Source: an uncultured Brachyspira sp.
Lineage (GTDB): Bacteria > Spirochaetota > Brachyspiria > Brachyspirales > Brachyspiraceae
DNA length: 63,853 nt
Direction of reading: 5' to 3'
NCBI RefSeq assembly: GCF_944388875.1
Contig: NZ_CALXKQ010000017.1
Location: forward strand, 1 to 63,853
The translations under genes and the position numbers were made by a program. The notes beneath the pieces are model-generated. The model was not told the origin of the DNA. It did no database searches and was given only the letters and a program-made list of their open reading frames with translations. Each line of letters opens with the position of its first letter. The first letter of the stretch is position 1. Below are positions 15,228-19,172 of the stretch, piece by piece.

Positions 15228-16667
15228 TCAAATTCTCATCATGGCATATTTCATATTATTACGTGCCTTATTATTATTTGGATTTAATTTTATAGCTATA
15301 TTACAATCCTCTATAGCTTCTTTATATAATCGAAGTCTAGTTTTTACATATCCTCTATCGGCATATAGATTTGAATTATTAGGGTTTAATTCTATCGCTA
15401 TATCATAATCTTTAATAGCTTCTTTATATAATTGAACTCTAGCTTTAGCAAATCCTCTATTATTATAGATGCTATAATCATTTGGATTTAATTCTATAGC
15501 TTTATCATAATCTTTAATAGCTTCTTTATATAATTGAACTCTAGCCTTAGCAAATCCTCTATTATTATAGATACTATAATCATTTGGGTTTAATTCTATA
15601 GCTTTATCATAATCTTTAGTAGCTTCTTTATATAATTGAACTCTAGCCTTAGCAAATCCTCTATTATTATAGATGCTATAATCATTTGGATTTAATTCTA
15701 TAGCTTTATCATAATCTTCAATAGCTTCTTCATATAATTGAAATCTAGTTTTTACATATCCTCTATTATTATATACATAATAATCATTTTTATTCAATTC
15801 TATGGATTTATTATAATCTTCAATAGCTTCTTTATATAATTGAACTCTAGCCTTAGCATCCCCTCTATTATTATAGATATTATAATCATTTGGATTTAAT
15901 TCTATAGCTTTATCATAATCTTCAATTGCATCTTTATACAATTTAAGATCCTCTTTAGTATATCCTCTATTATTATAGATAATATAATTATTTGGGTTTA
16001 ATTCTATAGCTTTATCATAATCTTCAATGGCTTCTTTATACAATTTAAGTCCAGCCTTGGCATCCCCTCTATTATTATAGATATTATAATCATTTGGATT
16101 TAATTCTATAGCTTTATCATAATCTTCAATGGCTTCTTTATACAATTTAAGTCCGGTCTTGGCATCCCCTCTATTATTATAAAAATCTGCATTATTTGAA
16201 TTTAATTTGATTGCTGTATTAATATCATTTATTGCTTCGCTATACTGATTTAAAATATTTTTTATCCTGCATCTGTAAAAATAAGCATCAGCATAAGTAG
16301 GATATAATTCTATTATAGTATTTAAAATAATAAGTGCTTTATCATACTCTTTATCATCAATTAATTTATCAATATTGTAGGAATTATTTTTTAATAGATT
16401 ATTTTTATCATAAGAAAGTGCATTATTTTTTAAACTATTAATGAGTATATCAATTCTGCAATTATTATATGCAAGTTCTTTCTTGATATTTTCTATGCTG
16501 TCAAATAAATCTCCTTTATTTTCTAATATACATTCTTTTATGCTGTGAATTTCATCTGCATCTTCACGCATTATATCAAGATACTCTAATTTATCATAAA
16601 AAGAGTCTATTTTTTCTACTAATATTTGTATTTTGTTATAAATATCATTTAAATTTTTATTATTCAT
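15228..16667 (-). CDS. Tetratricopeptide repeat protein, 479 aa, third gene of the dynamin operon
   Basis: About 130 N-terminal residues with coiled-coil character precede roughly ten 34-residue TPR units (about 130-470). Units 7-9 are almost identical (YSIYNNRGFAKARVQLYKEA and so on), and the DNA forms 102-bp tandem repeats. There is no signal peptide or membrane helix, so it is cytosolic. The start overlaps the stop of the upstream gene by 8 nt, showing translational coupling with the coiled-coil protein and the dynamin-like GTPase. TPR proteins are protein-binding scaffolds; here it probably binds one of those two partners. Confidence 0.88.
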   Translation of the reverse strand: MNNKNLNDIYNKIQILVEKIDSFYDKLEYLDIMREDADEIHSIKECILENKGDLFDSIENIKKELAYNNCRIDILINSLKNNALSYDKNNLLKNNSYNIDKLIDDKEYDKALIILNTIIELYPTYADAYFYRCRIKNILNQYSEAINDINTAIKLNSNNADFYNNRGDAKTGLKLYKEAIEDYDKAIELNPNDYNIYNNRGDAKAGLKLYKEAIEDYDKAIELNPNNYIIYNNRGYTKEDLKLYKDAIEDYDKAIELNPNDYNIYNNRGDAKARVQLYKEAIEDYNKSIELNKNDYYVYNNRGYVKTRFQLYEEAIEDYDKAIELNPNDYSIYNNRGFAKARVQLYKEATKDYDKAIELNPNDYSIYNNRGFAKARVQLYKEAIKDYDKAIELNPNDYSIYNNRGFAKARVQLYKEAIKDYDIAIELNPNNSNLYADRGYVKTRLRLYKEAIEDCNIAIKLNPNNNKARNNMKYAMMRI

Positions 16668-17415
16668 TGTCTAATATAGTATAAAAGTATTCTAATAATT
16701 GCTCTTTTTCTTCGTATTCTTTTCTTTTTGGTTCTATTTCTGCTTCTTTTAATTTTCTATTTTCTTCTATCTCATTTTTAATATTCTCTATACTTTTTTC
16801 TATACTGCTTATATTATTATTAATTGCTGCACTTATAGATTTTAAAGAATCATTTGTTATTTTATCTATGTTTTTGTAGTATTCTTCTTTGGCATCATTA
16901 ATTAATTCTTCAATATATGAAGATATTTTTCTTCCTCTTTCAGATGAATTTGAAATAGAAAGAAAAGATGAAAATTTTCTATCTGATAATGCTATATGTC
17001 TGGTTATATCATCAGAAAAAGTATTTTTAAACCTTTTTATAATATTTTCAAAATCATACTCCACAGACTTAACATTGAAGTCTATTTTATTTTTATCAAC
17101 AATATTTTTTATTTCTTCTATCATAGTATCAAATGTTTTTCTGCTGCAATCTATAGTTGCTTTTTCTATATTGTTTAATTTATCATAATATTTATTTCTA
17201 GTATCTGAAACAACTCTGTCCATTTCAACAGTTTCATCAACGGTTGCTGTATGTTGATTATAGCTTCTTTCTCTTTCAAATGTCTGAGCTGTTTCGTTAT
17301 AATCGACTCTGCTTGGTTTATTTCCTGCGATAACATTTGCAAATGATTTAACCGCTGATTTAATAGCTCTGCCTACAGTAGATGCAAAACTTTTTATTGC
17401 TCCCCAAAGTCCCAT
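16660..17415 (-). CDS. Coiled-coil protein with amphipathic N-terminus, between dynamin and TPR genes
   Basis: Not a family I recognise. The first 31 residues (MGLWGAIKSFASTVGRA and following) form one or two amphipathic, basic helices of the kind that insert into membranes or interact with them. After a polar linker (32-75) the rest is largely helical and charged, with a strong C-terminal coiled coil (about 195-245). A strong AAGGAGG site precedes the ATG. It is 18 nt downstream of the dynamin gene and overlaps the TPR gene. A membrane-recruitment or adaptor role for the GTPase is inferred from sequence and position. Confidence 0.65.
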   Translation of the reverse strand: MGLWGAIKSFASTVGRAIKSAVKSFANVIAGNKPSRVDYNETAQTFERERSYNQHTATVDETVEMDRVVSDTRNKYYDKLNNIEKATIDCSRKTFDTMIEEIKNIVDKNKIDFNVKSVEYDFENIIKRFKNTFSDDITRHIALSDRKFSSFLSISNSSERGRKISSYIEELINDAKEEYYKNIDKITNDSLKSISAAINNNISSIEKSIENIKNEIEENRKLKEAEIEPKRKEYEEKEQLLEYFYTILDNE

Positions 17416-17433
17416 AATTAACCTCCTTATTAA

Positions 17434-18876
17434 TTATTTTAAAGTTTCTTTTAATTCATTATTTGCTTCAAGCCATTTTTGCTTTAATTCATTAAATGCA
17501 TTATTAACTTCTATCTTGCTTTCTTTTAAACTTTCCATCTCTTCATTTTTTGATAGAATATAGGCTTCTTTTTCATTCTCGCTCATATCTAAAGTGCTTT
17601 TCATATCGGCAGTTTCATTTTTAAGCTCATCTATTTTTATTTTTGTATCTTTTATAAGATTAGAGAATTTTTTATTTAGATCTTTTAAAACTATATCGCT
17701 TGAATGAACTAAGATGCTGTTTTTTAATAATTTGTTTATATTATTAATATTAGTACTTTCTTTTATTTGCTGTATATTTTTTTTAATAGCATTTAATTTC
17801 ATCATTTTATATGCTTCTTCTGGATTTAAACTCTTATCTATATTAGAATTATCTAGTTTTAAATTAATATCAAAACTTTTTGCAAATTTATCTATAATGA
17901 ATATAGCATCTTCATCTATATCTTTTCCTTTTTCTATATCTGACAAATGTTTATCCACATAAGAAGAAACACCTAATATATTGCTATTCATTATATTTTC
18001 ATCTTTATACTTATCAATTAAATAATTAAACCATTCTTTTTTCTGCTTTAACCAATCAGATTTAGGGCTGTTTAATATATCCAATTTAGTACCTAATACT
18101 ATAACTTTATAAATATCTTTTCCCACATTTTCAAAAACTTTTAGTATAGTTAATAATTCATCATTTGTTAAATTAGATGACTGAACACATACTATAACAG
18201 CATTAGCTCTTTTTATATAATTATTTGTTATATCCGAACGGTAGCTTACAACATCATTTAATCCGGGAGTATCTACAAACATAACTTCTTTAGGAATATT
18301 TTCATTATTAATACCTACAATGATTTCTTTTACAAAATAATGCTTAGCACTTCTTTTTGAAGTATATTCTCTTACTTTTTCTACTAAAGAGTCCATATCG
18401 GCACAATTAATAGTTAAATCAGACTTATTTAGATAATCATTTTTTATTGAATCAGCATTAACAGATTCATATTCTCTTTTAAACACATTGCTTCTAAACT
18501 GCTTATCAGAATCTTCAACGCTATCCCAAAGCTCTTTCCATTCTTCACTTGTATAAAATCTTATAACAAGATGATTTTTATCTGAATATTTAAATTTTGT
18601 TAGAGATGCCGTTTCAGGTGTAACTTCTGTTGAAGCTATATTTTCTTTTAAAAAAGCATTTATAAAAGTTGATTTTCCTGCTTTTATGCTTCCTACTATA
18701 GCAACTTGTAAATCAGGTTCTTTTATAAAATCTTTATGATCTTTTATCTGATTTTCTACATTAGAAAAATCAGAATTGCTAAATACTTTTTTAAGATTAT
18801 TTATATACTCTTCTAATACATTTAATTTCCTGATCTGTCTTTTTGTTTCTGTAGTTATATTATCCAAACTAGACAT
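17434..18876 (-). CDS. Dynamin-like GTPase, 480 aa
   Basis: GTPase motifs are complete: P-loop GSIKAGKST (62-70), switch region EVTPETASLT (about 84-94), DTPGLND (202-208) and TKLD (263-266). The extended GTPase domain of about 320 residues and a C-terminal helical stalk with coiled coils (about 390-480) match bacterial dynamin-like proteins rather than Era/EngA. It lacks an obvious membrane paddle, which may be supplied by the amphipathic protein encoded next. It is first in a three-gene operon. Family members remodel membranes or protect them under stress or phage attack (DynA, LeoA); the role here is inferred. Confidence 0.87.
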   Translation of the reverse strand: MSSLDNITTETKRQIRKLNVLEEYINNLKKVFSNSDFSNVENQIKDHKDFIKEPDLQVAIVGSIKAGKSTFINAFLKENIASTEVTPETASLTKFKYSDKNHLVIRFYTSEEWKELWDSVEDSDKQFRSNVFKREYESVNADSIKNDYLNKSDLTINCADMDSLVEKVREYTSKRSAKHYFVKEIIVGINNENIPKEVMFVDTPGLNDVVSYRSDITNNYIKRANAVIVCVQSSNLTNDELLTILKVFENVGKDIYKVIVLGTKLDILNSPKSDWLKQKKEWFNYLIDKYKDENIMNSNILGVSSYVDKHLSDIEKGKDIDEDAIFIIDKFAKSFDINLKLDNSNIDKSLNPEEAYKMMKLNAIKKNIQQIKESTNINNINKLLKNSILVHSSDIVLKDLNKKFSNLIKDTKIKIDELKNETADMKSTLDMSENEKEAYILSKNEEMESLKESKIEVNNAFNELKQKWLEANNELKETLK

Positions 18877-19013
18877 ATTAGATCTCCAAAAATATTATTT
18901 TAATTTATTTAATACCATATTAATATATTTTATAACATATTTTATTATAAATCAATATAAAATATATAAAAAAATTATTGACTTAAAATATATAATACTG
19001 TATAATAAAAGAT

Positions 19014-19058
19014 GTGGGGGTAATGGTTTTTTAGGGTTCGATTCCCTTAACTCCCACT
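19014..19058 (+). other. tRNA-like minihelix: acceptor stem plus T-arm without D and anticodon arms
   Basis: GTGGGGG (19014-19020) pairs with CTCCCAC (19051-19057) as a 7-bp acceptor stem with one G-T pair. It is followed by TA, as at tRNA positions 8-9. A T-arm of AGGG, TTCGATT loop and CCCT lies at 19033-19047; the loop carries the invariant TTC. About nine nt replace the D, anticodon and variable regions. No CCA follows. It is best read as an internally deleted tRNA gene copy or an old integration-site remnant. Confidence 0.5.
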
Positions 19059-19172
19059 GGTTATAAATTAATATAATATTTTTGATTTTATTACTTATTC
19101 AATATATCAATCTTCAATTAAATCAAACAAAAATTTTTTTATTTGCAGGCATACACTAGTACATTTAAAAAT

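What the first reader, a model, noticed from the sequence alone, without database searches (positions are those of the whole stretch)
15228..18876. Three-gene operon: dynamin-like GTPase, amphipathic coiled-coil protein, TPR scaffold
The GTPase lacks an evident membrane-binding paddle, while the next gene encodes a protein beginning with an amphipathic basic helix. The third gene overlaps it by 8 nt and is a TPR scaffold. The set looks like a split membrane-remodelling or phage-defence machine, comparable in idea to DynA/LeoA (Eleos), but I know no described system with this composition.
Basis: partly seen in the sequence, partly recalled or inferred. Interest (0 to 1): 0.7.

Follow-up and report, generated by a model that had tools for sequence, protein, structure and literature searches.

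The report
Split dynamin-like membrane cassette, probably defence
A gut spirochaete carries a small mobile gene set in which a membrane-shaping GTPase of the dynamin kind has no membrane-gripping part of its own and always travels with separate membrane-binding helper proteins; it sits where relatives keep known anti-virus genes, so it is probably a new form of bacterial antiviral machinery.

Summary
The three genes are real and correctly placed. The GTPase (480 aa) is a dynamin-family protein reduced to G domain plus neck; its model has no trunk or paddle. The second protein starts with an amphipathic helix on an all-helical core. The third is a TPR protein.

The conserved unit is GTPase plus helical partner. 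In sampled Spirochaetota, profiles for each hit the same 4 genomes, and the genes are adjacent at all 6 loci. A seventh pair sits on a Lachnospira eligens megaplasmid. Partners number one to four per locus and share a core but swap membrane modules: amphipathic helix, Gly/Ala-rich hydrophobic segment, DUF1232, zinc ribbon. The last gene is conserved only in its N-terminal domain, followed by TPRs or by coiled coil plus transmembrane helix.

The cassette is sporadic (3 of 26 Brachyspira). At the window's site the closest relative has a DUF262 pair instead; at the paralogue's site relatives carry AbiL genes or nothing; the L. eligens pair adjoins BnzB-like and AbiL-like genes. Defence is therefore likely but rests on context. 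The partner's fold resembles dynamin stalks more than any other natural protein, but below significance and without sequence support. "Split dynamin" is the best reading, unproven.

The parts
17434..18876 (-). Gene 1: dynamin-family GTPase, 480 aa, G domain plus neck only
18670..18693 (-). P-loop (residues 62-69, GSIKAGKS); other G motifs: TPET 86-89, DTPG 202-205, TKLD 263-266
   Evidence: invariant or near-invariant columns in A7
17440..17748 (-). C-terminal neck hairpin, residues 377-479; in canonical DLPs trunk and tip are inserted here
   Evidence: AlphaFold model
16660..17415 (-). Gene 2: helical partner, 251 aa
17323..17415 (-). N-terminal amphipathic helix (residues 1-31), MG[LF][FW] start shared with L. 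eligens
   Evidence: hydrophobic moment test; low pLDDT (about 45-50) in model
16666..17241 (-). All-helical core of gene 2 (residues 59-250), shared by all paralogues
   Evidence: alignments; model
15228..16667 (-). Gene 3: N-terminal helical domain plus TPR array, 479 aa
16443..16667 (-). N-terminal domain of gene 3 (about residues 1-75), homologous to the start of the last gene of the other Brachyspira loci
   Evidence: local alignment scores 105 and 101, best of 5000 shuffles 66
15268..16181 (-). Nine 102-bp direct repeats encoding TPRs
18978..19006 (+). Divergent promoter-like site TTGACT-17-TATAAT, kept in the orthologous locus as TTGATT-17-TATAAT
19014..19057 (+). tRNA-like minihelix (acceptor-like stem plus T-arm), present only at the two TPR-type loci; possible small RNA of the cassette

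Best explanation
The operon is a horizontally moving cassette that encodes a two-part dynamin-like membrane machine, most likely used against phages. The GTPase is a CjDLP1-type dynamin stripped to G domain and neck. The membrane-binding and stalk-like part is supplied in trans by one or more helical partner proteins, most of which carry their own membrane module at the N terminus. Proposed action: the partner's helical core docks on the GTPase neck; GTP-driven pairing of G domains clusters the partners on the inner membrane; on phage-induced membrane stress or entry the assembly tethers, reinforces or breaches the membrane. The last gene (TPR, or coiled coil plus TM helix) positions or triggers the assembly. 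Shown: genes, domains, lack of trunk and paddle in the model, amphipathicity, strict linkage of GTPase and partner, module swapping, sporadic distribution, sharing of sites with defence genes. Inferred: physical interaction, membrane binding, GTP-driven assembly, defence outcome.
For: Linkage: partner profile and GTPase profile at E<=1e-45 hit the same 4 of 392 Spirochaetota genomes, adjacent at 6 of 6 loci; 7th pair in Lachnospira eligens, partner homology hhalign 94.6%, E=7e-8. GTPase: best sequence match to a solved structure is CjDLP1, E=4e-30; fold matches SynDLP Z 26.5, CjDLP pair Z 23, truncated mitofusin-1 Z 22; no trunk. Partner: VIA-align ranks 2-12 are all dynamin-superfamily stalks or trunks (MxB 11.8, MxA 10.8, dynamin 9.8, Drp1 9.5, CjDLP2 9.4), next natural fold Z 8.9. 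Membrane modules: amphipathic helices p about 1e-4; Gly/Ala segment KD 1.7-1.9; DUF1232 E=1e-13; terminal-gene TM KD 2.9. Defence context: same trxB/SBP junction in G016 holds a DUF262 pair (PADLOC HEC-06 E=4e-17); purE junction of the paralogous operon holds AbiLi (E=1e-74) or AbiLi/AbiLii in G020 and G013, and is empty in G016; L. eligens operon runs BnzB-like (E=4e-21), GTPase, partner, with WYL regulator upstream and AbiLi-like ATPase downstream.
Against: No experiment. Partner-to-stalk similarity is below significance in Foldseek (best dynamin hit E=0.12, prob 0.80), inside the Z range that unrelated helical bundles reach (tool note), and not supported by profile comparison with the trunks of the genome's own DLPs (probability 0.4-4%). 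Only 7 loci known, 5 of them in one genus. No matches in phage or viral-contig collections. Flanking genes in the window itself (trxB, peptide-binding protein) are housekeeping. Two partners lack an obvious membrane module (L021:5885-6514 basic tail; L048:4029-4859).
Confidence: 0.5

Rival explanations
1. GTPase-gated killer: the helical partners are membrane-permeabilising toxins (antimicrobial-peptide-like or Gly/Ala-rich hydrophobic N termini) and the small dynamin-type GTPase is a switch that holds or releases them on infection, giving abortive infection rather than mechanical remodelling.
For: Partner helix is amphipathic and, in two lineages, cationic; Gly/Ala-rich hydrophobic N termini in paralogues; several paralogous partners in one operon would suit redundant effectors; Foldseek top line is the ClyA pore (E=0.05, not significant); the GTPase lacks the trunk that canonical dynamins need for membrane work.
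Against: In the structural re-ranking alpha-pore formers fall far below dynamin stalks (AhlB Z 7.5 against 11.8). Acidic amphipathic helices in the Brachyspira paralogues are not typical of lytic peptides. No immunity gene apparent.
Confidence: 0.25
2. A mobile but non-defensive membrane-maintenance or vesiculation module, like the vesicle role reported for LeoABC.
For: LeoA/B deletions halve vesicle cargo in ETEC (PMC4159319); dynamin-type GTPases are general membrane remodellers; flanks in the window are housekeeping genes.
Against: Sporadic presence (3 of 26 Brachyspira), site sharing with DUF262 and AbiL genes and the BnzB-like/AbiLi/WYL neighbourhood in L. eligens fit defence better.
Confidence: 0.2
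3. Site sharing is coincidental: the junctions are simply insertion-tolerant, and the cassette is cargo of another kind, for example anti-plasmid or inter-bacterial defence.
For: Only one genome shares the exact window junction and three inform the purE junction; no recombinase was recognised next to the operon in the window.
Against: Three independent sites (trxB, purE, L. eligens) all show known phage-defence genes rather than random cargo.
Confidence: 0.05

Closest known systems
Canonical bacterial dynamin-like proteins (Nostoc BDLP1, C. jejuni Cj-DLP1/2, SynDLP, IniA)
   Same: Dynamin_N G domain, neck bundle of N- and C-terminal helices; closest by sequence to Cj-DLP1 (E=4e-30)
   Different: Trunk and lipid-binding tip missing from the GTPase chain; partner is not a second GTPase; one to four paralogous partners with swappable membrane modules
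Eleos / LeoA-LeoBC (ETEC)
   Same: Dynamin-type GTPase in an operon held in defence databases; LeoBC is also a DLP divided over two chains (PMC4159319)
   Different: The LeoB/LeoC split runs through the G domain, and both Leo partners are DLPs with a putative membrane-binding region; only partial LeoBC/LeoA profile hits here (E 1e-6 to 1e-14) and no adjacent LeoA
DynA of Bacillus subtilis (phage-lysis delay)
   Same: Single-locus dynamin system with anti-phage membrane action (PMC8844932)
   Different: DynA is one chain with two complete DLP units; here GTPase and membrane part are separate proteins
Bunzi (BnzA/BnzB)
   Same: The L. eligens operon starts with a BnzB-like membrane protein (E=4e-21); related genes on lactococcal plasmids pNP40 and p267C, the latter beside true BnzA/BnzB
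   Different: No BnzA hit among the proteins of these loci that were scanned, no BnzB detected in the four spirochaete genomes (no positive control)
Truncated mitofusin-1 constructs (mini-MFN1, G domain plus HD1)
   Same: Same domain content and fold as the predicted GTPase (Z 21-22)
   Different: Those are engineered truncations; here the short form is natural and conserved

Membership tests
Dynamin superfamily (G domain) | Dynamin_N domain with G1-G4 motifs | tested here: met
   Pfam PF00350 E=1e-19 above cut-off; motifs conserved
Canonical bacterial dynamin-like protein | Neck / bundle-signalling helices flanking the G domain | tested here: met
   Helices 3-31, 38-52, 377-429, 433-479 in the model; aligned with SynDLP, CjDLP and MFN1
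Canonical bacterial dynamin-like protein | Trunk/stalk bundle in the same chain | tested here: not met
   3-residue turn where the trunk would be inserted; same length class in the spirochaete homologues, 464-487 aa
Canonical bacterial dynamin-like protein | Lipid-binding paddle or TM segment in the same chain | tested here: not met
   Maximum KD19 hydropathy 1.17, no tip insertion
Canonical bacterial dynamin-like protein | GTP-driven oligomerisation on membranes | not testable with these tools
   needs protein biochemistry
Dynamin stalk (gene 2 core) | Stalk fold | tested here: inconclusive
   VIA-align ranks 2-12 are dynamin stalks or trunks, Z 9-12, but Foldseek E=0.12
Dynamin stalk (gene 2 core) | Sequence homology to DLP trunks | tested here: inconclusive
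   hhalign against trunks of the genome's own DLPs, probability 0.4-4%; weak LeoBC/Sey1 hits E 0.04-0.4
Eleos (LeoA + LeoBC) | Adjacent LeoA and LeoBC over most of their length | tested here: not met
   Only partial G-domain hits; neighbours are trxB and a peptide-binding protein
Bunzi | BnzA plus BnzB | tested here: not met
   No BnzA or BnzB hit among the three window proteins; BnzB not found in the four genomes, though that search lacked a positive control
Anti-phage defence system | Presence at sites that hold known defence genes in relatives | tested here: met
   DUF262 pair at the same junction; AbiL at the purE junction; AbiLi/BnzB-like/WYL in L. eligens
Anti-phage defence system | Demonstrated reduction of phage plaquing | not testable with these tools
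   needs a plaque assay

The most novel reading that the evidence does not exclude
A previously undescribed class of bacterial defence system: a dynamin divided into a GTPase-neck chain and interchangeable stalk proteins that carry different membrane modules, so that one motor drives several membrane-targeted arms; in the TPR subtype possibly with a divergently transcribed tRNA-like mini-RNA as sensor or trigger.
Probability: 0.3. Interest if true: 0.8.

Novelty: new variant of a known kind. Interest (0 to 1): 0.6.

Why it matters
Dynamins are normally single chains in which motor, stalk and membrane anchor are fused. A natural system with motor and membrane part on separate, interchangeable proteins would let the contribution of each be tested by mixing parts, and would show evolution swapping membrane anchors under one motor. 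It would also add a compact dynamin-based system to the few known or suspected in phage defence.

Tried and rejected
Phage origin: no hits in phage records or viral contigs, no informative PHROG hit for genes 1 and 2. Low-scoring partner hits in five other Spirochaetota genomes: G122 and G240 are Borrelia Vlp-type lipoproteins, G374 lies in a chemoreceptor-like gene, G232 was fetched but not read and G220 was not examined; those read are chance coiled-coil or low-complexity matches. tmRNA att-site idea: the weak Rfam tmRNA hit at 19033 does not match the genome's own ssrA. Direct homology of the partner to DLP trunks by profile comparison: not supported. Tape-measure and other Pfam hits of gene 2 (E >= 0.004, below cut-off): coiled-coil noise. 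No terminator predicted in the region.

Full report
Observation. The window lies in a Brachyspira genome (G000; the near-identical cassette of G006 is the contig named Brachyspira catarrhinii Z12). Gene 1 is a Dynamin_N GTPase (E=1e-19), gene 3 a TPR protein; gene 2 has no significant family in Pfam, NCBIfam or PADLOC or PHROGs.

What is conserved. A search with gene 2 found relatives in three of 26 Brachyspira species. The same genome carries a second operon at G000:C1 (L021): a GTPase 49-50% identical to the window's, then three partners in a row and a last gene. G006 carries both operon types. G022 carries one GTPase, three clear partners, a fourth divergent one and a last gene. A distant spirochaete (G355) has partner-GTPase-partner, then a 475-aa zinc-ribbon protein. 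In 392 Spirochaetota genomes, the partner profile (strong hits) and the GTPase profile at E<=1e-45 pick exactly the same four genomes, and the genes adjoin at all six loci. The GTPase cut-off was set in advance without inspecting the full score distribution. A seventh pair lies on the Lachnospira eligens megaplasmid, in another phylum: GTPase 37% identical over the G domain, immediately followed by a 251-aa protein that starts MGFF and aligns with the partner profile (probability 94.6%, E=7e-8). Its C terminus is cut by an IS256 element.

Variable parts. The partners share a helical core but differ at the N terminus: amphipathic helix (window, first partners of L021, L023, L024, and L. eligens; shuffle p 1e-4 to 4e-4, 0.02 for L024), Gly/Ala-rich hydrophobic segment (KD 1.7-1.9), DUF1232 (E=1e-13), zinc-ribbon-like, or basic tail. 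The last gene in all five Brachyspira loci begins with the same roughly 60-residue domain (alignment scores 105 and 101 against a shuffle maximum of 66; alignment). It continues as TPRs in the window and G006, and as coiled coil plus a C-terminal TM helix (KD 2.9) in L021 and G022. The copy in L023 is cut by the contig end.

Structure. The GTPase model (pLDDT 83.5) is G domain plus neck, with long C-terminal helices joined by a tight turn where other DLPs insert trunk and tip. Best folds are SynDLP, the Cj-DLP pair and truncated mitofusin-1. By sequence the nearest solved relative is CjDLP1 (E=4e-30), and the nearest relatives among the genome's full-size DLPs are the 736-743-aa type. The partner model (pLDDT 78; N-terminal helix poorly placed) is all helical. 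In the VIA re-ranking, after one designed bundle, the next eleven chains are all dynamin-superfamily stalks or trunks (Z 11.8 to 9.1); the first other natural fold has Z 8.9. These eleven share one fold, so this counts as one observation. Foldseek alone is not significant (E=0.12 for MxB stalk), helical bundles can reach such Z by chance, and profile comparison with trunks of the genome's own DLPs gives nothing. I treat 'separate stalk' as the leading structural hypothesis, not a result.

Context. In the closest relative (G016) the same trxB and peptide-binding-protein flanks (DNA 79-82% identical at both junctions) enclose a two-gene DUF262-type pair instead; the second of these matches PADLOC HEC-06, Orf5 and SspE profiles (E down to 4e-17), the first was named from its sequence motifs only. 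At the purE junction of the second operon, G016 is empty, while G020 has AbiLi (E=1e-74) and G013 AbiLi plus AbiLii. In L. eligens the pair follows a BnzB-like gene with 23- and 17-nt gaps, with a WYL regulator upstream and an AbiLi-like ATPase downstream. BnzB-like relatives occur on lactococcal plasmids pNP40 and p267C next to WYL regulators and zinc-ribbon proteins; p267C also carries true BnzA/BnzB. Taken together this is consistent contextual evidence for defence; no tool here can show protection.

Mechanism. I commit to a two-part dynamin: the GTPase acts as motor, the partners as membrane-anchored stalks, the last gene as tether or trigger. The chief rival is a GTPase-gated membrane-disrupting toxin. 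The two predict different outcomes in helix-deletion and membrane-potential tests. Comparison with known systems (Eleos/LeoABC, DynA, Cj-DLP1/2) rests on PMC4159319, PMC8844932 and PMC6104087. The paper I know as the source of Bunzi and Eleos was not held, and recent candidate-system catalogues could not be checked, so prior description cannot be fully excluded.

Extra feature. Immediately upstream and divergent is a conserved promoter-like site followed by a tRNA-like minihelix. A genus-wide DNA search finds it in full only at the orthologous operon of G006 (81% over 80 nt; other hits are short AT-rich fragments). It is absent upstream of the other Brachyspira GTPases (one of these, L023, has only 97 bases of upstream sequence) and from G016 at the same junction. 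Its folding energy is not exceptional against shuffles (z=-1.3).

Noticed in passing
window 18978-19060 (+); L022 2907-2989: Promoter-like TTGACT-17-TATAAT followed directly by a tRNA-like minihelix (acceptor-like stem plus T-arm, no D or anticodon arm), conserved only at the two TPR-type cassettes; tRNA remnant or small RNA of the system.
   Followed up: partly
L069, L070, L071 (own genome contigs C27, C3, C18): Three clusters of three full-size dynamin-like GTPases; the third type bears either C-terminal TPRs (518 aa) or an N-terminal TM plus coiled coil (610, 645 aa), the same alternation as the last gene of the split operon. The C3 copy has its first GTPase broken into two frames.
   Followed up: partly
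L026 10157-11341; L090 6989-8209; L091 7004-8122: A BnzB-like membrane protein family shared by the L. eligens megaplasmid and lactococcal plasmids pNP40 and p267C, each with a WYL regulator and zinc-ribbon proteins nearby. On pNP40 its neighbour ends in an EF-Tu domain 3 and shares its first roughly 40 residues with the L. eligens GTPase.
   Followed up: partly
L024 1139-2713: AAA ATPase (IetA-like, E=1e-24) downstream of the G022 cassette, together with small proteins that share an N-terminal domain with a divergent partner (L024 5397-6140).
   Followed up: no
L076 1870-6057: DUF262-type genes beside the YifB-like gene in G013, apparently broken into several frames.
   Followed up: no
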